NCBI GenBank assembly: GCA_017848855.1
Contig: JAFIHF010000062.1
Coordinates: 1-62,856 of the forward strand
Direction of reading: 5' to 3'
Source: Rhodanobacter denitrificans
GTDB lineage: Bacteria > Pseudomonadota > Gammaproteobacteria > Xanthomonadales > Rhodanobacteraceae
DNA: 62,856 nucleotides
In this document: piece by piece, positions 270 through 61,726 of the stretch
Layout: the number at the start of each line of letters is the position of its first letter
Position numbering within the stretch: the first letter of the stretch is position 1
The notes under the pieces: model-generated
Databases searched by the model: none
What the model was told of the DNA's origin: nothing
The model's input: the letters and a program-made list of their open reading frames with translations, nothing else
Translations under genes and position numbers: made by a program

Positions 270-413
270 GCGCCGTTCGCCACCGCTCCTGGCGGTGGCG
301 TGGGCCAGCAAAGAGAAGTGACTCGGGCGCCGGCAGGCGACCGAAACCGCTTTGAAACTTGCGGAAACGTGAGAGCAAAAGCCCCTCTCCCCAATCCCTC
401 TCCCACCAGTGGG
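270..413 (+). repeat. Partial copy of the dispersed composite hairpin repeat
   Basis: A hairpin with a 9-bp perfect stem (278-286 pairing with 292-300, loop TCCTG) is followed by the family's conserved head: CAAAGAGAAG, the GGGCGCCGGCAGGCG palindrome and GAAACCGCTTTG. A CCTCTCCC/GGGAGGGG palindrome closes it at 380-413. Compared with the four fuller copies (4227, 4661, 30230, 32540) the body is shortened. No gene is seen between 209 and 431. Confidence 0.7.
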
Positions 414-4107: not shown

Positions 4108-4226
4108 GCGGGATCTCCTCAATCGTGTCCGCGCATTGTGGCATTGCGGTGGGCGGGTTAGGAATGCGGGGCGCTGAATGGGGGCGTGTGACGCCGCGCT
4201 TTTTGCGTCTCTCGTGCTTACCGCAA

Positions 4227-4503
4227 GGAACAAAGCGGTTTCGAGCGCCTGCCGGCGCCCGAGCTACTTTCTCTTTGCGTGCCCAAAGAGAAAGGAACCA
4301 AAGAGAAAGGGCACCCCGATGGCGCGCCCTCCAGGCATCCTGCCTTCCGGGTGCGCGGGCGGGTTCCGGGGTTTTTCGACGGGACTCCTGTCCCGGCGAA
4401 AAACTGGCCCGCATCCGTGCGGGCCATCCTGTCGGACTTTCCTCCACCCGCCCGCCGCGCCATAGGGGCCCCGGGTAAAGCAGCGCGCTCCCAGCGCGCA
4501 GAA
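4227..4503 (-). repeat. Composite hairpin repeat, copy A
   Basis: Copy A of the dispersed family, oriented so that the minus strand carries the GGA loops. Hairpins: 4268-4293 (10-bp stem), 4333-4345, 4372-4403 (TTTTTCG arm, loop TCCT), 4406-4425 (8-bp stem, loop ATCC-type) and 4483-4499 (6-bp stem, loop TCCCA). The head carries CAAAGCGGTTTCG followed by CGCCTGCCGGCG. No protein gene is credible here; the several ORFs crossing it are low-complexity readings of the palindromes. Confidence 0.8.
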
Positions 4504-4528
4504 GCAACAGCAAGAGCAACAGCAAGAG

Positions 4529-4584
4529 CTTCCCCCTCACCCCGGCCCTCTCCCCCAAGCGGAGCTTGGGGGAGAGGGAGTTGG
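4529..4584. repeat. CCTCTCCC/GGGAGAGG palindrome
   Basis: An inverted repeat of CCCTCTCCCCCAAGC and GCTTGGGGGAGAGGG with a short loop. Related palindromes occur at 380, 27924, 30235, 32863 and 62618, usually next to the composite hairpin repeat, so the two travel together. It resembles REP-type intergenic palindromes. Confidence 0.75.
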
Positions 4585-4660
4585 TGCGGCGCGCGCTTCG
4601 GCTTTGCTCTGCCTGCAGGGGAGGGGGCAGCGGGCTCGTGCGGCTTTGCTCGTGCTTGTG

Positions 4661-4998
4661 CTCTTGCTTCTGGCGCGCACGATGCGCGCCCGCTCTTCCG
4701 GGGCCCCTCGGCGGCGGTGAGGCGGGGACGAGGAGGCCGCGCAGCGGGCGAGCCCACGGATGGGCTCGCCTTTTCGACCGGACAGGAGTCCGACCGAAAA
4801 GCCCGGCCACGGCTCACGGACTTGCCGGGCAGGACGCCCGGCAAGCGCCGCCGCGGGGTGTCGTTTCTCTTTGGTGACTTTCTCTTTGGACAAGCAAAGA
4901 GAAAGTCACTCGGGCCGCGGCAGCGGCACGAAACCGCTCTGTCGCTTGCGGCAGCGGCACGAAACCGCTCTGTTCCTTGCAGCAGCGGCATGAAGCCG
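4661..4998 (+). repeat. Composite hairpin repeat, copy B (opposite orientation)
   Basis: Copy B lies inverted to copy A about 160 bp away. Hairpins on the plus strand: 4672-4690 (loop ACGAT), 4747-4770 (10-bp stem, loop CGGA), 4771-4800 (loop AGGA), 4821-4845 (10-bp stem, loop AGGAC) and 4879-4904 (10-bp stem). It ends with two to three tandem units of GCAGCGGCACGAAACCGCTCT. The whole 4108-5105 gap consists of these repeats, with no supported gene. Confidence 0.8.
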
Positions 4999-5105
4999 CT
5001 TTGTCGCTGGCGCAAACGATCAAGCGATAGATGGGGCCGTCCGCCGACAGGCGATCAAACCCGCTCAGCCGCCAGCCCCAGCCTCCTTGGGCGCACCAGC
5101 GCCGA

Positions 5106-24940: not shown

Positions 24941-25017
24941 GTAGGAGCGCACCCTGTGCGCGAATGCTCTGGCGCTTGATCGGAGCAAGAGCATTCGCGC
25001 ACAGGGTGCGCTCCTAC
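24941..25017. repeat. GTAG-type REP palindrome, copy 1
   Basis: Inverted arms GTAGGAGCGCACCCTGTGCG, each extended to GCGAATGCTCT, face each other across a loop of about 15 bases. Each arm itself contains the GCGCAC/GTGCGC palindrome. Its right edge forms the stop codon of aroB (TAG at 25014-25016). Confidence 0.9.
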
Positions 25018-30229: not shown

Positions 30230-30612
30230 CGCTTTTTGTCCCCTCGCCCGCTTGCGGGAGAGGGGTTGGGGGAGAGGGGCTTTTGCTTCGGCGCTGTCGC
30301 AATTGACAGAGCGGTTTCGAGCGCCTGCCGGCGCCCGAGTTCCTTTCTCTTTGAATGGCCAAAGAGAAAGGAACCAAAGAGAAAGGCCACCCCGATGGCG
30401 CGCCCTCCAGGCATTCCCGGATCAAGTCCGGGACAGGCTCTGCCTTCCGGGTACGCGGGCGGGTTACGGGGTTTTTCGCCGGCACATTCATGTGCCGGCG
30501 AAAAACTGGCCCGCATCCATGCGGGCCATCCTGCGGACTTTCCTCCACCCGCCCGCCCGCCGCGCCATAGGGGCCCCGGAGAAGTAGCGCGCTCCCAGCG
30601 CGCACTCGGGCG
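30230..30612 (-). repeat. Composite hairpin repeat, copy C
   Basis: Copy C has the same orientation as copy A. A CCTCTCCC-type unit (30238-30280) is followed by the head CAGAGCGGTTTCGAGCGCC, hairpins at 30345-30371, 30472-30505 (14-bp class stem), 30508-30527 (8-bp stem, loop ATCC-type) and 30587-30603 (loop TCCCA). Compared with copy A, an extra hairpin (TCCCGGATCAAGTCCGGGA, about 30415-30433) is inserted into the AGGCA/TGCCT hairpin. It ends about 110 bp before the stop of the HEPN-like gene; 30613-30723 shows no gene. Confidence 0.8.
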
Positions 30613-30723
30613 CAGCCGCTGCGCGGCTGCGGAAGTCCCGCGCATTGTGCTTTTGATTGGGATTGTTGATGGGTTTGCAGAATGCGTTGTTACGGGATTA
30701 ATGCCTGAGTTAGCGCTCATTGG

Positions 30724-31665
30724 CTAGTACTCGTTGTTATCGTCTTCCCACATGCTGCGAGCAAGCTTGTCAACGTCGATGCCAAAATACTCCACGGCAT
30801 CATAGTGACTCGTCGAGATGTAACTCTCACCGAGCCCACAAGCAAGGAGCTTGGAGTATCCGGTGATCTTCAGCCCGCATGCGACGCAGAAAAAATCCTC
30901 TGGCTTCATTGCTTGCCGTTCAACGATGCCGTCTTCATCAGTTGAGGTTTTTGCCACGCCCATGGCTTTTCCTTGAACGAGCGCAGTGGCAGTGCAGGAA
31001 GGACACTGAACTCGATGGCCGTAGTGACGAAGAGACGCAGCGGCAGCTTGGTCTAATGCAGCCTTCTTGTCCGGATCGGATTTCGCGGACCAGACCACTT
31101 TGTGAGCATTGATTGTGCCTAGCACGCTCTTGGCGGCCTCGTCGCTGAGCGCCGAGATGTCATCGCGCGCTTCTGCTGCACCAGTTGCACCGAACAAAGA
31201 TTCCAGCGTTGCGCCGCAATGAGCCAAAAGGACATCGCATACTGCAAAGAAGTGCGGACGCCACGAAGAAGAGCTGGATCCATCAAAAGGCATGTTTCCT
31301 GAATGCAGTTCCGAGTTGCGCCGTGAGAGGTGAGTGGCGCAGAAATTCACATGCTCGCGTGTGAATGCAGGCACAAGCTCTTCTGCTCGTGCAATCAACT
31401 CGGTTATAGCGGCAGTGCGAGGGATAAATTTCGCTTTCTTTGGGGTATGACCTAGCGCGTAAAGTACGTTGTTCCAGTCGGAGTTGTCGGCAACTAGTGC
31501 GGGAGAAATTGCCGAGACAGAAGCTCTTATCAGCATCTCGAGCAGAAATGTCGACCACAGTCCGTACTGCCAGTCGGTGGAGTTGGCCTCCATGGCTTCC
31601 GAGTACAACTCGGATTTAGCTAGATACGATTCTTTTGACCATTCGTGAGTTGTTTTCGCTGTCAT
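30724..31665 (-). CDS. HEPN-like / zinc-ribbon hypothetical protein
   Basis: 313 residues, no family recognised with certainty. The N-terminal ~150 residues are helical and contain R116-N-S-E-L-H121, which fits the R-x4-6-H motif of HEPN RNases. The C-terminal part has a zinc-ribbon pattern: C221-P-S-C224 and C260-V-A-C263. Base composition is visibly more AT-rich than neighbours, suggesting recent acquisition. Its ATG follows the dioxygenase stop with no gap, so the pair is one operon. A stress or defence RNase is possible but unproven. Confidence 0.6.
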   Translation of the reverse strand: MTAKTTHEWSKESYLAKSELYSEAMEANSTDWQYGLWSTFLLEMLIRASVSAISPALVADNSDWNNVLYALGHTPKKAKFIPRTAAITELIARAEELVPAFTREHVNFCATHLSRRNSELHSGNMPFDGSSSSSWRPHFFAVCDVLLAHCGATLESLFGATGAAEARDDISALSDEAAKSVLGTINAHKVVWSAKSDPDKKAALDQAAAASLRHYGHRVQCPSCTATALVQGKAMGVAKTSTDEDGIVERQAMKPEDFFCVACGLKITGYSKLLACGLGESYISTSHYDAVEYFGIDVDKLARSMWEDDNNEY

Positions 31666-32349
31666 CTAGCTGACGCTCTTTAGGTAAATTCGTTTGAGAA
31701 CTCGCTTGTCGGAAGCTTGAGGTACGGCTGACCTTCCGTGAAGAGTGCGCCAATTGTCCACTATCAGAGTTTGACCAGGCTCTTCAAGGGCGACCTTGCT
31801 CTGCTTCGCAGTGCTCAGTCGATCGCTTATCAAACTCGCGATGCGGGCAGCAGCGCGGTTTGCCGGCTCTAAGAAAAGTGCATCCCAGCGAAAGATGTCG
31901 CTGCTCAACATTCGAAGCGGAATCTGGCGGCCGTCAAGTGGGCGGCGAGCCCGAAAGATGGCTCTAGCACATTCCACTTGCTCTTGCGGTCTAAGGATGT
32001 GATCTCTATGTATGAAGTTAGTCGTTACGTTACTGGATCCGGAAGCACAAATAAGTGCGAAGTATCTTGGAGGAACGCTCCAATGCGCCATGTCGGTATG
32101 AAACGGAAACGCACCGAGACCGAAGTTGTCGCTATAGCTGGGTCCGACTCCACACCCCGGCCGAGGCACCAGTGTCTGGATGGGGCTAATCCCCTGAATC
32201 ACATCAATCCTTCCTAGAGCGCCCTCGATGTAGAGTTCGTCAAAGTCGAGGGGGATCCTTGTTACCGCAAATCCAGTTTCGTACAGCGTCCGTTGCCATT
32301 GATGCATGATATGAGCGCTAACGCCTAGGTAGACCCCGGATCGGGGCAT
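31666..32349 (-). CDS. TauD/TfdA-like Fe(II)/2-oxoglutarate dioxygenase
   Basis: 227 residues. Candidate iron ligands are H84 and D86 in F-P-F-H-T-D-M-A-H-W and H204 in V-D-N-W-R-T-L-H-G-R, with the 2-oxoglutarate-binding Arg near 220 (R-V-L-K-R-I-Y-L). That is a complete facial triad, so the enzyme may be active. It is short for the family (TauD is about 280). The frame of a neighbouring AT-rich segment (32350-32530) lacks a clear extension. Low GC and repeat-flanked context suggest transfer. Confidence 0.78.
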   Translation of the reverse strand: MPRSGVYLGVSAHIMHQWQRTLYETGFAVTRIPLDFDELYIEGALGRIDVIQGISPIQTLVPRPGCGVGPSYSDNFGLGAFPFHTDMAHWSVPPRYFALICASGSSNVTTNFIHRDHILRPQEQVECARAIFRARRPLDGRQIPLRMLSSDIFRWDALFLEPANRAAARIASLISDRLSTAKQSKVALEEPGQTLIVDNWRTLHGRSAVPQASDKRVLKRIYLKSVS

Positions 32350-32539
32350 ATGTAGCGATGCTCCATCGCCGAAGCAGCAGCGTCAAGTGAGGAAATTTTG
32401 CGTGCTGACGAAGGGCTGGCCGGCTTTCCTAGGCCAACAGTCGCGAACATGCTGGCGTGCATATCGCACGAGACAAGGTTGATATCGCTTATCAGCCCAG
32501 AAGTTCGGATATGCACGCCACGCCAGTGGTGAGCGAGGG

Positions 32540-32930
32540 TCTTGCTTCTGGCGCGCAGGATGCGCGCTGCTTTTCCGGGGCCCCTCGGCGGCGGTGAGAC
32601 GGGGACGATCAGGCCGCGCAGCGGGCATCGCCATGGATGGCGATGCCTTTTCGACCGGACAGGAGTCCGGCCGAAAAGCCCGGCCACGGCTCACGGACTT
32701 TCCGTCCATGGATGGACGGAAAGCGCTGCCGCGGGGTGTCGTTTTCTCTTGGCTACTTCTCTTTTGGACAAGCAAAAGAGAAGTAGCTCGGGCGCCGGCA
32801 GGCGCACGAAACTGCTTTGAAACTGGCGATGGCGCAGAGACAAGAGCAGCCCCCTCACCCCAGCCCTCTCCCCCAACGATGAAACTGTTGGGGGGAGAGG
32901 GAGCATCGAGAGGGAGCATCGAGAGGGGGC
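32540..32930 (+). repeat. Composite hairpin repeat, copy D
   Basis: Copy D, inverted relative to copy C across the dioxygenase/HEPN-like operon. Plus-strand hairpins: 32551-32567 (loop AGGAT), 32624-32647 (10-bp stem, loop TGGA), 32648-32677 (loop AGGA), 32698-32723 (11-bp stem, loop TGGA) and 32756-32783 (10-bp stem). The head GGGCGCCGGCAGGCGC and a CCTCTCCC palindrome (32863-32902) follow. Bases 32350-32540 next to it are AT-richer and hold no supported gene. Confidence 0.8.
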
Positions 32931-37036: not shown

Positions 37037-37186
37037 GTAGGAGCGCACCCTGTGCGCGAAAGCGAGAAGTGAGTGCAGAGGAGTGAGGAGATAGAGAAAG
37101 CATGGGCGGCGAGGTGCTGCTCCTCTCTCACTTCTCGCTCCTCTGCACTCACTCCTGCTCCATTCGCGCACAGGGTGCGCTCCTAC
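37037..37186. repeat. GTAG-type REP palindrome, copy 2, with a second inverted repeat nested in its loop
   Basis: Outer arms GTAGGAGCGCACCCTGTGCG at 37037 and its complement ending at 37186 enclose an inverted repeat of AGTGAGTGCAGAGGAG and its complement (about 37069-37153). The inner unit resembles the one at 60732-60826. The two families are nested. Confidence 0.85.
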
Positions 37187-46932: not shown

Positions 46933-49900
46933 ATGAGACTTCAAGACCATATCGATTTCACCACCCTGCAGTGGGTCCGGCCCGAGCTGGAACAGACGCT
47001 GGCGGATGCCCGCGAGGCGCTGGAGTCCTACGTCGACAACCCGGCCCGCGACGAGGCCATGCGCGCCTGTGCCAGCAAGCTGCACCAGGTGCAGGGCACG
47101 CTGCGCATGGTCGAGCTGCCCGGCCCGGCGATGGTCGCGGCGGAGATGGAAGCGCTCGCCACCGCGCTGCTGGAGGGCGGCGTCGCGCAGCGCGAAGAGG
47201 CCTACACCGCGCTGATGCGCGGCCTGATGCAGCTGCCCGACTACCTCGAACGCCTCGCCGGCGGCCACCGCGACGTGCCGGTGGTGCTGCTGCCGCTGCT
47301 GAACGACCTGCGCGCCAGCCAGGGCCAGGAGGCGCTGACCGAGGCGGCACTGTTCCACCCCAACCTCGACGCGTTCCTGCCCACCCAGGCGCCCGCCGCG
47401 ATGAGCGAGGCGCAGGCCGCGGCGCGCCGCGGCGAGCTGGCCGAACTGCGTCTGCAGTTCCAGCAGCACATGCTCGCCTGGTTCCGCGGCCAGTCGCAGA
47501 CGCAACCGCTGGCCGGCATGCGCAAGGCGCTGCTGGCGATCGCCGCGCGCTGCTACCACGTGCACGGCCGCCGCCTGTGGTGGATCGCCGCCGGCGTGGT
47601 GGAAGGCCTCGAGCGCGGCATGCTCGGCGCCCATGCCGCCGAACTGCGCCAGCTGATCGGCAAGGCCGACCGCCACATCCGCCAGCTGATCGAGCAGGGC
47701 GAGGACAGCCTGCGCGGCGGCGACGCCGACCAGTTGTGCAACCGCCTGCTCTACATCGTGGCGCAGTCGCGTCAGCACAGCCCGCACATGGAGCTGCTGC
47801 GCCGCACCTACGCGCTGGACAACCTGCTGCCCGACGCCGACGAGCTGGAACACGCGCGCGGTTCGATCGCCGGGCACAACCGCGCCCTGCTCGACTCGGT
47901 GGCCAAGGCGCTGAAGGAGGACCTGCTGCGCGTCAAGGAAGCGCTCGACCTGTTCCAGCGCCAGCCCGACGCCGACCCAGCCACGCTGGCGCCGCAGTGC
48001 GAGCTGCTCGGCCGCGTCGGCGACACCCTGGGCATGCTGGCGCTGTCGGTGCCGCGCCGGGTGATCGAGGAGCAGCGGCGCGTGCTCGAGGAGATCGTCG
48101 ACAAGCTGCGCGCCGCCGACGAGGACATCCTGCTCGACGTGGCCGGCGCGCTGCTGTACGTGGAAGCCTCGCTGGACGACCACATCGAGAGCCTGGGCGC
48201 GGGCGAGGAGCCGCACGACGGCGCCGTCGCGCCGGGCCTGCCGCGCAGCGAGGCGCAGGGCATCCTCAGCACGGTGATGCAGGAGGCGATCCGCAACACC
48301 GAGAAGGTGAAGGAGGCGATCGTCGCCTTCGTCGAGTCCGGCTGGGAACACGCCGGGCTGGCCGCCGCGCCGGCCCACATGAGCGAGGTGGCCGGCGCCG
48401 CGCGCATGCTGTCCGCCGAGCGTCCGGCCGAACTGGCCGAAGGCATCGGCCGCTTCATCCACAACGAGTTGCTGGTCGACCGCCGCGTGCCCAGCAGCGT
48501 GCAGATGGATCACCTGGCCGATGCGCTGGCCGCGCTGGAGTACTACCTGGAGGCGGCGCGCGAACACCGCGGCGGCCTGGCGCACATCATCGACGTGGCC
48601 GAGCACAGCCTCGGCCAGCTCGGCTACTGGCCGCTGCCCGCCGCGCGGCCGCTGCCGCCGGCCGCCGCGCCGGCGCAGGACGCCGAGGCGCGCAGCGGCG
48701 AGGCCCTGTCCGAACCGGTGAGCCTGTATCCCGGCAGCGACGCCAGCCAGCTGTTCGTGGCGCCCGAGGCGCCGCGCGAGACGCCGGCGCACGACGTCGA
48801 CGGCCTGCGCTACGCGCAGACCGAGCCCACCGCGCCGCCGCAGGCCGCCGCCGCCGACGATGCCGACTGGATCGAGATCGAGGAAGAGATCGAGGAACAG
48901 GTGCCGGCGAACGCCGCGCTGGCCGCCGCGTTCCGCTTCGACCACCAGGCCGAGGGCATCGACGACGACATCCGCGAGATCTTCCTGGAGGAAATGCAGG
49001 AGGAGATCGACAACCTGCGCGGCGCCGAAGGCGCCTGGCTGGCCGACCCGGCGCGGCTGGAACTGCTGACCCCGATCCGCCGCTCGTTCCACACCCTGAA
49101 GGGTTCGGGCCGGCTGGTCGGCATCGCCGCGCTGGGCGAGTTCGCCTGGCGGGTGGAGGACATGCTCAACCGCGTGCTCGACCACACGATCGAGCCGCAC
49201 GCGGGCGTGCAGGTGCTGGTGCGCCACGCCATCGACGCGCTGCCGCAGCTGCTGGCCTCGCTGAAGGGCGAGGGCGCGCCGCACGCGCCGATCGAGGCGA
49301 TCCAGCAGGCCGCCAGCCGGCTCGCCGCCGGCGACGCATCCGCGCGGATCGAGGACCACGCGCCGGCCGCGATGGAAACCGTGCGCCGCACGGTGCGCCG
49401 CCGCGTGCCGCGGTTCGACGCCGCGGCAGCCGCGATACCGCCTGCGGGCGTCACCGATGCCGGCAGCGTCGCCGCCGCGGAGCCGGCCGAGCCGCCGCTG
49501 TCGCTGGCGATCTCGCCGCTGCCCTCGGTCGACCCGGTGCTGCTGGAAATCCTGCGCAGCGAGGTCGCGCAGTACCTGCAGACCATCCGCACCGCGATCC
49601 AGCGCGCCAGCGGCGAACTGCCGGTGGGCGAGGACTTGCTGCGCGCCGTGCACACCCTGCATGGCGCGATCGCGATGGTCGAGATCCCCTTGATCACCCA
49701 GCTGCTGTCGCCGCTGGAAAGCCTGCTCAAGCGCGTGCGCAACGCCGGGCAGCCGCTGCCGGTGGAGGGCGTACGCCTGCTCGACCGTTCGGCCGACGTG
49801 GTCGATCACGTGATGGCCCAGTTCGACGTGGCCGCGCCGCAGCTGCCGAACGTCGACCTGCTCACCGCCCAGCTGACCGAACTGCGCGACCGCTATCCGG

Positions 49901-52900
49901 AATCGCAGGTGGCGCACGTCGGCGCCGAGCCCCATGCCGAGGCCGCGCCGTCGCCGGCCGAATCCGCCATGCCTTCCGAGGCCGCGGACGAGCACGCGGC
50001 CGCCGCCGCGGAGCACCCGACATCGGCGACGCTGCCGGAGGATGGCGCGCACGACGACTACGCCAGCGAGCTGATGGCCGCGCTCGGCGCCTTCGAACCG
50101 CACGCGCCGACCTCGGCCGAACGCGAAGCGACCGAGCGCGCCGAAGCCGAACGTGCCGAAGCCGAGCGCGTCGAAGCCGAGCGCGTCGAAGCCGAGCGCA
50201 TCGAAGCCGAGCGCATCGAAGCCGAGCGCATCGAAGCCGAACGTGTCGAGGCCGAACGTGTCGAGGCCGAACGCCTCGAAGCCGAGCAGCGCGCCCGCGC
50301 AGCCGCCGAGCAGGCGGCGCAGGCGAAGGCCGAACAGGAGCGGGCCGAACGCGAGCAGGCCGAACGCGAGCAGGCCGAACAGGCGCGCCTCGAACAGGCG
50401 CGCCTCGAACGGGAGCGTGCCGAGCAGGCACGGCTGGCGCAGGAGCGCGCCGCCCGCGAAGCCGCCGAGGCGCAGATGCGCGCGGCGGCGGAAAAGGCCG
50501 CGGCCGAACAGCGCGCCGCGGAAGCCGCGGCGGCGGAACAGGCCCGGCAGGCCGCGGAGCGCGAGGCGGAGGCGGCCCGCGCCGCCGCCACCGAAACACA
50601 AGCCGGCGACGCGGCGCCGGTGGCCGCCATGGCGGCCGCCGACACCGGCCTGCCGATCGACGCCGACCTGCTCGAAGTCTTCGTCGAGGAGGCGCGCGAG
50701 ATCCTCGACCACGCCGACGGCGTGCTGGCGCAGTGGCATGCCGAGCCGGCCGCGACCGGGCATCTTCCGGAGCTGCAGCGCGACCTGCACACGCTCAAGG
50801 GCGGCGCGCGCATCGCCGGCCTGATGCCGGTGGGCGACCTGGCCCACGCGATCGAGACGCTGCTGGAGAAGCCGGTGGCCGACGCCGCCCAGGCGGTCCC
50901 GCTGATCGGCGTGCTGGAGAGCAATTTCGACCAGTTGCACACCATGGTGCAGCAGGTGGCGCAGGGCCAGGTGCCGGCCTACCCGAAGGCCGCGATCGAC
51001 CAGCTGCTGGCGCTGGCCGGCAAACAGCAGTTCGCCGACGAGGCGGCGCTGGCCGCCCGCGTGGCGCCGCCGGCGCAGCCCGCCGCGCCGCTGCCCGAGC
51101 TGCTGCCGGCGGAGCAGGGCGCCGACGCGCCCGCGGCGCAGGAGCAGATCCGCGTCCGCGCCGAGCTGCTCGACAACCTGGTGAACCATGCCGGCGAGGT
51201 GGCGATCTACCGCTCGCGCCTGGAGCAGCAGGTGTCCGGCTACCGCTTCAACCTGGTCGAGCTGGACCAGACCGTGCAGCGCCTGCGCAGCCAGCTGCGC
51301 ATGCTGGAAATCGAGACCGAGGCGCAGATCATCGCGCGCTTCCAGCGCGAGCACCGCGAGGCCGGCAACACCACCGTGTTCGATCCGCTGGAGCTCGACC
51401 GCTTCTCGCAGCTGCAGCAGTACTCGCGTGCGCTGGCCGAGTCGGTGTCCGACCTGGTGTCGATCCAGGGCATGCTGGACGAACTGACCCGCCAGGCCGA
51501 GAACCTGCTGGTGCAGCAGTCGCGCGTCAGCACCGAGCTGCAGGAAGGCCTGCTGCGCACGCGCATGCTGCCGTTCGACACCATGGTCCCGAACCTGCGC
51601 CGCACCCTGCGCCAGGCAGCGCAGGAGGAAGGCAAGAGCGCGCAGCTGTACGTGGACGGCGCCCACGGCGAAATGGACCGCAACCTGCTCGACCGCATCA
51701 AGGCGCCGTTCGAGCACATGCTGCGCAACGCCGTGGCGCACGGCATCGAGTCGCCGGCGGAACGCCGCAAGGCCGGCAAGCCGGCCGAAGGCGCGGTGCG
51801 CATCCGCGTGGCGCGCGAGGCTACCGAGGTGGTGGTGCGCGTCAGCGACGACGGCCGCGGCCTCGACCGCGAGGCCGTGCGCAAGCGCGGCGTGGAGCGC
51901 GGCCTGATCCGCGCCGACGCGCGCCTCAGCGACGACCAGCTGCTCGCGCTGATCACCCAGCCGGGCTTCTCCACCGCCAGCACGGTCACCCAGCTCGCTG
52001 GCCGCGGCGTGGGCATGGACGTGGTGGCGAACGAGATCAAGCAGCTCGGCGGTTCGCTGGCGATCGAGTCGCAGCCGGGGCAGGGCACCACCTTCGTGCT
52101 GCGCCTGCCGTTCACCCTCGCGGTGACCCAGGCGATCCTGGTGCGCATCGGCGAGAGCACCTTCGCGATCCCGATGACCTCGGTGCAGGGCGTGGCGCGG
52201 ATCGGCCCCGACGAACTGGCCGCCAGGCTGGCCGAGCCGGAGCCCGTGTTCGGTCACGGCGGCGAGCAGTACGGCATCCACGACCTGGCCGAGCTGCTCG
52301 GCCTGCCGCCCGGCGCGGTGCCGGAGGGCGAACAGCCGCCGCTGCTGCTGACCCGCGCCGGCGACCTGCGCGCGGCGATCCGCATCGACGCGGTGCTGGG
52401 CTCGCGCGAGATCGTGGTGAAGTCGGTCGGCCCGCAGGTGAGCTCGGTGCCGGGCGTGCTCGGCGCCACCATCATGGGCGACGGCTCGGTGCTGGTGATT
52501 CTCGATCTGGCGCCGCTGGTGCGCCACGGCGTGGTGCGCCGCGAGCAGCGCCTGGCCGAAGGCCTCGGCGCGGTCGAGCTGCCGACGATCGAGGAGCAGC
52601 GTACGCGTCCGCTGGTGATGGTGGTGGACGATTCGATCACCATGCGCAAGGTCACCGGCCGCGTGCTGGAGCGCCACGAGTACGAGGTGAGCACCGCGAA
52701 GGACGGCGTCGACGCGCTGGAGAAGCTGCACGAGCGCGTGCCCGACCTGATGCTGCTGGACATCGAGATGCCGCGCATGGACGGCTACGAGCTGGCCACC
52801 CACATGAAGGCGGACCCGCGCCTGCGCGAAGTGCCGATCATCATGATCACCTCGCGCACCGGCGAGAAGCACCGCCAGCGCGCGTTCGACATCGGCGTGG

Positions 52901-53010
52901 ACCGCTATCTCGGCAAGCCGTACCAGGAGGCCGAGCTGCTGGCGCAGATCGGCGAGGTGTTGGAGCAGCGCGCCATGGCGCTGCTTGCAAGGGAGCCACA
53001 CCATGCTTGA
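46933..53010 (+). CDS. chpA: Hybrid chemosensory histidine kinase ChpA/PilL
   Basis: 2025 residues. Hpt-type histidines lie in H-T-L-K-G-S-G (about 717), H-T-L-H-G (about 908) and H-T-L-K-G-G (about 1286); the N-terminal domain has a degenerate site L-H-Q-V-Q-G (about 50). The kinase core carries [17 protein letters not shown] and G-R-G-V-G-M-D-V (1590-1700), then a CheW domain and a receiver with D-I-E-M-P-R-M-D-G (1895-2010). A pentapeptide E-A-E-R-x repeat forms a charged linker (about 1070-1120). Pseudomonas ChpA is longer, with more Hpt domains. Confidence 0.95.
50110..50287 (+). repeat. 15-bp tandem repeat within chpA encoding E-A-E-R-x units
   Basis: About ten near-identical 15-bp units (consensus GTCGAAGCCGAGCGC with A/G/C changes at the variable codon) code for a pentapeptide whose first position is V, I, A or L. 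Such charged repeats often form a single long helix. Unit number could vary between strains. Confidence 0.85.
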
Positions 53011-55021: not shown

Positions 55022-55097
55022 GTAGGAGCGCACCCTGTGCGCGAATGCTCTGGCGCTCATCGAAGCTAAAGCATTCGCGCACAGGGTGCGCTCCTAT
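55022..55097. repeat. GTAG-type REP palindrome, copy 3
   Basis: GTAGGAGCGCACCCTGTGCG arms face each other over a loop of about 14 bases. The right edge reads ATAG instead of GTAG and forms the rsmE stop codon (TAG on the minus strand at 55094-55096). Lying between convergent genes, it may also help stop transcription. Confidence 0.9.
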
Positions 55098-61650: not shown

Positions 61651-61726
61651 GCAGGAGCGCACCCTGTGCGCGACTGCTCTTGCTCCGATCAGCGCCAGAG
61701 CATTCGCGCACAGGGTGCGCTCCTAC
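61651..61726. repeat. GTAG-type REP palindrome, copy 4
   Basis: Arms GCAGGAGCGCACCCTGTGCG and its complement, ending GTAG on the minus strand, face each other over a loop of about 14 bases after mazG. Confidence 0.9.

What the first reader, a model, noticed from the sequence alone, without database searches (positions are those of the whole stretch)
4227..4998. Composite hairpin repeat: stems change completely between copies but pairing is kept
Aligned in one orientation, four copies (4227, 4661, 30230, 32540) share head, order and loops. The same hairpin has arms GGCCCGCA/TGCGGGCC in copies A and C, GGCGAGCCCA/TGGGCTCGCC in B and GGCATCGCCA/TGGCGATGCC in D. Another is CTTGCCGGGC/GCCCGGCAAG in B and CTTTCCGTCCA/TGGACGGAAAG in D. 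Conserved pairing without conserved sequence is the mark of selection on structure, or of swapping whole hairpin modules.
Basis: seen in the sequence. Interest (0 to 1): 0.85.

Follow-up and report, generated by a model that had tools for sequence, protein, structure and literature searches.

The report
Shuffling three-stranded DNA repeat element
A repeated stretch of non-coding DNA in a bacterium has ends predicted to fold into a three-stranded, knotted shape, and its letters change from copy to copy in step so that the shape is kept; what it does is not known.

Summary
Copies A-D are arms of a larger element: a type-A and a type-B arm (about 290 nt each) face each other inverted, usually 0.65-0.75 kb in all, in dozens of places in this genome; 14 of 15 genomes held of its genus have arm matches. 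Part of the "complete change" of stems is therefore type A versus type B, but stems also vary within type A with pairing kept. Interleaved pairs assort separately and heads at shared loci switch alleles in step, so swapping of whole hairpins cannot be the only cause; constraint on the fold plus recombination between copies can. The triplex idea is known (BoxC/PIT/TM_ECO); this A/T-rich, pseudoknotted family, also found in Pseudomonas and Selenomonadaceae, I did not find described. At four loci accessory genes, some defence-like, lie between the arms. Function unproven.

The parts
4222..4502 (+). Unit 1, type-A arm (copy A)
   Evidence: profile hit and type scores; DNA fold z -8.4; structure count
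4245..4258 (+). outer hairpin H1 of arm A
   Evidence: helix 1, three of five pairs changed on both sides
4264..4314 (+). head of arm A: outer stem and pyrimidine tract 4264-4277, loop 4278-4283, purine tract and outer stem 4284-4297, mirror purine tract 4300-4308, loop partner 4310-4314. In this copy the outermost stem bases do not all pair (5' CTA, 3' GAA)
4315..4467 (+). long-range stem of arm A (4315-4326 with 4456-4467) enclosing hairpins 4333-4345, 4372-4403 and 4405-4426
   Evidence: DNA fold; helices 4-7; helix 4 never varies in type A
4483..4499 (+). inner hairpin of arm A (never varies in type A)
   Evidence: helix 8
4503..4641 (.). centre of unit 1, holding a G/C-rich triplex motif of the TM kind read leftwards from 4577
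4642..4984 (-). Unit 1, type-B arm (copy B)
   Evidence: profile hit and type scores; DNA fold z -9.1
4858..4909 (-). head of arm B
30298..30604 (+). Unit 2, type-A arm (copy C), head about 30340-30390
30605..32535 (.). stretch between the arms of unit 2, GC 0.54 against 0.71 in flanks, with a 313-aa ORF of unknown family (30724-31665, -) and a TauD-like ORF (31666-32349, -)
32536..32835 (-). Unit 2, type-B arm (copy D), head about 32736-32787
301..371 (-). partial head, the rest of the arm missing
   Evidence: profile hits; sequence

Best explanation
A dispersed, non-coding DNA element built of two inverted arms (A and B). Each arm has an outer head whose letters are held to a three-stranded fold: a pyrimidine tract pairs with a purine tract, a second purine tract that mirrors the first lies along that duplex as a third strand, and the loop pairs with the bases after the third strand, locking the fold as a pseudoknot. 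Shown here by covariation: the duplex, the mirror relation, the loop-partner pairing and several further hairpins. Inferred: that the fold forms in single-stranded DNA (for example on the lagging strand), that a protein recognises the folded head rather than its letters, and that this lets the element spread. Recombination among the many heads and arms reshuffles stem alleles; copies that lose the fold are lost, so alleles turn over quickly while the shape persists.
For: Mirror rule in 13 of 13 distinct asymmetric tracts, 49 heads. Loop and partner match over four or more bases in 284 of 360 hairpins against about 101 when re-paired at random. In 58 distinct heads the top 13 of 1176 column pairs are all predicted pairs or mirror triples. 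Interleaved assortment: this genome, paired V 0.93-1.00, unpaired 0.16-0.54 with one at 0.75. At shared loci 18 of 25 head comparisons changed tract, mirror kept within one mismatch in both in 16; 18 changed loop, partner fits in 18; 14 changed outer stem, paired in 14. Pair counts against shuffled and slid controls. For DNA rather than RNA: both orientations in each unit, no strand preference of 35 Firmicutes heads, and the statement in PMC4666352 that purine-motif triplexes cannot form in RNA. For spread: 3 to 57 matches per genome in 14 of 15 genomes of the genus.
Against: No biophysics, RNA or protein data. The mirror rule fits equally a pyrimidine-motif triplex on the opposite strand. No mobilising enzyme was found: two Y1_Tnp matches in the genome have no arm in their fetched loci. 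No clean empty site or target duplication. Covariation tests are not tree-corrected; unpaired segments are also associated, more weakly, and mostly above shuffles. Further pair types did not exceed shuffles. Two interrupted alleles (L114 and L131; L081) do not mirror exactly at the interruption.
Confidence: 0.55

Rival explanations
1. A structured RNA: the strand opposite to the head's purine strand is transcribed and folds as a pseudoknot with a pyrimidine third strand in the major groove (telomerase-like; analogy recalled), acting for example in mRNA 3' regions.
For: The opposite strand has the class IV order, and PMC4666352 states that pyrimidine-type intrastrand triplexes occur in RNA. In outer stems of 125 distinct heads, A-C mismatches outnumber G-T 33 to 2; read on the opposite strand these A-C are G-T wobbles. 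Units tend to avoid divergent gene pairs: 4 of 48 against 34 of 153 control gaps (overall p 0.086).
Against: Each two-armed unit has heads in both orientations; 35 Firmicutes heads show no strand preference; in the rest of the arms G-T outnumbers A-C on the other strand (55 to 12 and 18 to 11, on a structure fitted with RNA energies); no Rfam family at the curated cut-off.
Confidence: 0.2
2. No function: stems stay perfect through copying errors between arms of a hairpin (template switching), gene conversion and spread of a few old alleles.
For: Alleles are few and shared between copies; heads at shared loci turn over fast, arms reassort and units invert.
Against: Template switching makes inverted or direct copies, not mirror copies (established knowledge); interleaved pairs assort separately; in one shared locus (L041, L254) all three tracts differ while loop, partner and outer stem agree.
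Confidence: 0.15
3. The paired arms work as a landing or exchange site for accessory gene cassettes, through homologous recombination between arms or an unknown recombinase.
For: 8 of 95 facing arm pairs hold 1.05-2.84 kb between the arms and none lies between 0.34 and 1.05 kb; consecutive arms 0.4-4 kb apart face each other in 8 of 9 cases, the ninth being one arm split by a group II intron. At one locus shared by four named genomes the contents differ: PDC-S19, unknown, AAA_13/PDC-S06, Pycsar TIR plus cyclase plus PDC-S52. GC of contents 0.53-0.59, flanks 0.64-0.71. 4 of 8 contents match PADLOC models.
Against: Only four distinct loci; flanking genes give homology too; in L116 and L146 only one flank is within the locus. 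Control: 1 of 10 flank or other window proteins had a weak PADLOC match, too few for an enrichment claim. At the window's unit-2 site G010, G001, G014 and G004 have no arms and other genes, and G013 has arm remnants around a transposase-like ORF.
Confidence: 0.3

Closest known systems
BoxC / PIT / TM_ECO class II intrastrand triplex repeats (Holder et al. 2015, PMC4666352, read in part; Hoyne and Maher's papers known only through it)
   Same: Y-loop-R-turn-R order with the third strand antiparallel to R; intergenic, many copies; inverted pairs that join a type A with a type B motif (five of five pairs in E. coli K-12).
   Different: Tract is A/T-rich, not CCCTCNCCC; loop pairs with bases after the third strand (the word pseudoknot does not occur in that paper's main text); sits at the end of a 290-nt structured arm; asymmetric alleles co-vary. 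G/C-rich TM-like motifs also occur near some units.
REP / REPIN elements moved by RAYT (PMC3116915, PMC8266576, PMC3733652: listing and start of abstract only)
   Same: Dispersed, intergenic, palindromic, inverted pairs.
   Different: Arms ten times longer, no RAYT gene found beside arms. Separate GTAG-type pairs exist in the window.
Triple-helix pseudoknots of telomerase RNA and viral frameshift signals (recalled)
   Same: A strand lying along a duplex, locked by loop pairing.
   Different: Those are single RNAs; here a multi-copy genomic repeat with co-varying alleles, molecule and strand unknown.

Membership tests
Class II intrastrand triplex repeat (BoxC/PIT/TM kind) | Y, R, R order with the third tract mirroring the second | tested here: met
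   13 of 13 asymmetric alleles; columns
Class II intrastrand triplex repeat (BoxC/PIT/TM kind) | stems 6-15 nt and loops 1-6 nt (ITxF rule) | tested here: met
   tracts 7-11 nt; loop 6 nt if the closing G-C pair is counted in the stem, 8 nt if not; turn usually 4-5 nt
Class II intrastrand triplex repeat (BoxC/PIT/TM kind) | triplex forms in vitro | not testable with these tools
   no bench work
TM_ECO (BoxC) proper | consensus CCCTCNCCC...GGGNGAGGG...GGGNGAGGG | tested here: not met
   heads are CTTTCTCTTTG-like; TM-like motifs nearby are separate
REP/REPIN | short palindrome of about 20-40 nt | tested here: not met
   arms about 290 nt
REP/REPIN | inverted pairs | tested here: met
   23 of 24 units with two arms of at least 200 nt are A facing B, one is B facing a B-like arm (counted)
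REP/REPIN | associated RAYT (Y1_Tnp) gene flanked by the repeat | tested here: not met
   two Y1_Tnp matches in the genome; no arm in their 3.2-3.3 kb loci L167, L168
MITE | terminal inverted repeats with target-site duplication at insertion | tested here: inconclusive
   inverted arms met; sites lacking the unit are too diverged to show a duplication
Known RNA family (Rfam 15) | match at the curated score | tested here: not met
   0 matches in the window; relaxed search of 4150-5050 gave 8 matches, all below their cut-offs
Structured RNA | is transcribed | not testable with these tools
   no RNA data held

The most novel reading that the evidence does not exclude
The heads are shape-recognised DNA ends: an unknown protein binds a locked three-stranded fold of a single strand, whatever its letters, and through it the element spreads between genera and even phyla and lets short antiviral gene cassettes be traded between the paired arms; the rapid, pairing-preserving switching of stem alleles would reflect an arms race or self-avoidance between copies.
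Probability: 0.15. Interest if true: 0.9.

Novelty: new variant of a known kind. Interest (0 to 1): 0.72.

Why it matters
For bacterial triplex repeats it has stayed open whether the triplex itself is what evolution keeps; the paper read here found no function and little sign of the triplex in cells. Here 13 asymmetric alleles in which three strands change together give direct comparative evidence, and a closing pseudoknot makes the fold a concrete target for structure work. Stem turnover at shared loci can be compared between close species, which makes the question testable.

Tried and rejected
Tried without result: Rfam at the curated cut-off; plasmid and phage records, no match each; viral contigs, 0 for one exact head pattern; an exact-allele pattern in 368 other genomes of the class, 0 matches (one allele only, so an underestimate); text searches for the repeat itself (97 papers, 20 listed, none of the listed titles about such a repeat; 1 unrelated paper); a protein family recurring beside heads (the group covering 110 loci includes translations of the repeat itself; the rest look like shared loci); clean empty sites.

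Rejected: a RAYT-driven REPIN; my own interim idea that conserved edges of the inter-arm contents mark a new mobile cassette, since four of the eight proved to be one shared locus. Not tested: whether the long ORFs across unit 1 are translated; I take them as chance ORFs.

Full report
Observation. The sequences quoted in the finding are present. The four copies are arms of two units. Unit 1 is A (4222-4502, +) facing B (4984-4642, -); unit 2 is C (30298-30604, +) facing D (32835-32536, -) with 1.93 kb between them. A and C are one arm type, B and D another. Of 24 units with two arms of at least 200 nt in the fetched stretches of this genome, 23 are one A and one B arm, in either order; one (L066) is a B arm facing a B-like arm (counted). 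The draft genome (3.49 Mb, 73 contigs) gave 58 matches to arm A, a lower bound; 14 of the 15 genomes held of the genus have matches, 3 to 57 each. Of 96 stretches returned by the scan of named genomes 50 are titled Rhodanobacter, and the strongest arm matches are in such genomes, so the host is most likely a Rhodanobacter; no tool names it.

Fold of an arm. As single-stranded DNA, arms A and B fold far better than shuffles (z -8.4 and -9.1). A 68-pair structure counted on 23 type-A arms gave 98.3% paired cells, 18 pairs changed on both sides and 103 doubly changed cells, none reached in 500 shuffles, while sliding the partner by 1 to 3 columns drops pairing to 40-49%; further pair types did not exceed shuffles (430 of 500). 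The long-range stem and the inner hairpin never vary in type A, so they are neither supported nor contradicted there; in 34 type-B arms two pairs of the long-range stem change on both sides in three arms.

The head. Inside the outer hairpin each arm has a pyrimidine tract (commonly CTTTCTCTTT), a short loop, the complementary purine tract, a turn, a second purine tract, and a few bases complementary to the loop. The second purine tract looks like a direct copy only because the commonest core reads the same backwards. In alleles whose core is not symmetric it is the mirror image: 13 of 13 distinct pyrimidine tracts, 49 heads, score higher for mirror than for direct (counted by hand from its table, which comes from 247 hairpins with a third purine run among 529). 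In that table the rows where direct scores higher or ties have a core that reads the same both ways, or are G/C-rich or poly-A rows outside this family. Two alleles with an interrupted tract (L114 and L131; L081) keep a purine, not an exact mirror, at the interruption. A mirror copy is what a purine third strand antiparallel to the duplex purine strand requires: the class II design of PMC4666352.

Pseudoknot. Loop and partner vary together: for example GTGGCC with GGCCAC, GTGCCC with GGGCAC, GTGCTC with GAGCAC, TTGTGC with GCACAC. Of 360 hairpins that passed the filter (not all of this family) 284 match over four or more bases, against about 101 when loops and partners are re-paired at random; of the 243 A/T-type heads 230 do. 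In 58 distinct ungapped heads the two strongest of 1176 column pairs (APC-corrected G) are loop-partner pairs, the next two outer-stem pairs, and the top 13 are all predicted pairs or mirror triples; 19 of the top 25 are. No tree correction was made.

Block swapping or structure? Order along the strand is outer stem, tract, loop, tract, outer stem, third strand, partner, so the pairs interleave. In this genome's heads (57 rows before allele filtering) paired segments have Cramer's V 0.93-1.00 and unpaired ones 0.16-0.54, except one neighbouring pair (outer stem with tract) at 0.75. Over all 242 rows paired V is 0.76-1.00 and unpaired 0.16-0.48; most unpaired values also exceed shuffles, so linkage exists but is weaker. 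Exchange of whole hairpins alone cannot give this pattern.

Turnover at shared sites. Units lie at the same place in related species, for instance G011 and G007 with flanks 89-98% identical, yet their heads differ. In 25 head comparisons from 15 locus pairs (5 further sides missing; some loci reused) 18 changed tract allele, with the mirror kept within one mismatch in both copies in 16; 18 changed loop, with the partner fitting in 18; 14 changed outer stem, with pairing kept in 14; several comparisons changed little. In one case (L041 and L254) all three tracts differ while loop, partner and outer stem are the same. Whole units are also found inverted (L238 and L262; L044 and L333, the latter with one arm largely lost).

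Where it occurs. In 10 of the 11 Pseudomonas stretches two heads face each other; in Firmicutes I saw mostly single heads. Two of the 96 stretches (L076, L143) gave no arm-profile hit. One exact pattern found none in 368 other genomes of the class and none in 10 other genera of the family and 16 order-level genomes, so by this allele the distribution is patchy. Phage, plasmid and viral collections gave none.

Context. Of 83 Rhodanobacter units 48 could be placed between called genes: 28 tandem, 16 convergent, 4 divergent, against 81, 38 and 34 control gaps (p 0.086). Of 35 Firmicutes heads the upstream gene is on the same strand in 15, opposite in 14, unseen in 6. G/C-rich motifs of the TM kind lie within 200 nt outside 9 of 67 heads, and at least a half motif in 25 of 67 (no background rate).

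Genes between the arms. Of 95 facing arm pairs (at least three counted twice), 87 are separated by 343 nt or less and 8 by 1.05-2.84 kb. The eight are four loci. One locus, flanks 85-92% identical among four named genomes (only one flank available in two of them), holds different contents: a PDC-S19 protein (L090), an unknown protein (L098), an AAA_13/PDC-S06 protein (L116), and a Pycsar TIR effector, cyclase and PDC-S52 protein (L146). L240 holds a DUF5343/PDC-M34A protein, L140 an ice-binding-like one. The window's unit 2 holds a TauD-like ORF and one of unknown family; G011 has other ORFs at that site, and named locus L151 has arms 84 nt apart there, with 0.9 kb carrying a periplasmic-binding protein gene outside one arm; G010, G001, G014 and G004 have no arms there, and G013 has arm remnants around an integrase-core ORF. 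In this genome a group II intron reverse transcriptase lies inside one A arm (L055). Four of eight contents match PADLOC models; of ten flank or other window proteins one matched weakly. This is suggestive, not a proven enrichment.

Reading. Shown: a repeated element whose heads keep a three-strand mirror relation and a crossing helix while their letters change. Inferred: folding in single-stranded DNA, recognition by a protein, spread through it. Open: strand, molecule, enzyme, benefit. Literature seen: PMC4666352 in abstract, introduction, most of methods, results sections 15, 16 and 18 and part 1 of 2 of the discussion, plus a word search; REP/REPIN papers as search listings only. Searches for a prior description; no listed title or abstract start described this family, but most subscription journals are not held and long result lists were shown only in part.

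Noticed in passing
24941-25017, 37037-37186, 55022-55097, 61651-61726: Four inverted pairs of a GTAG-type repeat (GTAGGAGCGCACC, 8 matches against 0.13 expected), looking like REPINs; the genome's intact Y1_Tnp gene has such a pair about 1.4 kb away (L168).
   Followed up: partly
4533-4577, 30240-30279, 28033: G/C-rich triplex motifs of the TM/BoxC kind, one in the centre of unit 1 and one just outside unit 2.
   Followed up: partly
4917-5009: Three tandem copies of a 31-nt unit outside the B head; similar tandem 31-mers precede other heads.
   Followed up: no
L146 209-3044, L116 161-2649, L090 4960-6368, L098 4624-5672: One locus with different, mostly defence-like contents between the arms in four Rhodanobacter-titled records.
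   Followed up: partly
L055 1175-3027: A group II intron reverse transcriptase/maturase gene inside an A arm of this genome.
   Followed up: partly
425-645 and 1297-1517: A direct repeat of 221 nt, 90% identical, close to the partial head at 301-371.
   Followed up: no
50086-50416: 15-base tandem repeats inside a very long ORF (46933-53010, +).
   Followed up: no
L075, L089, L139, L153 and other Selenomonadaceae loci: Firmicutes MAGs carry the same head motif, alike in letters as well as in plan, mostly as single heads; how it crossed phyla is unexplained.
   Followed up: partly
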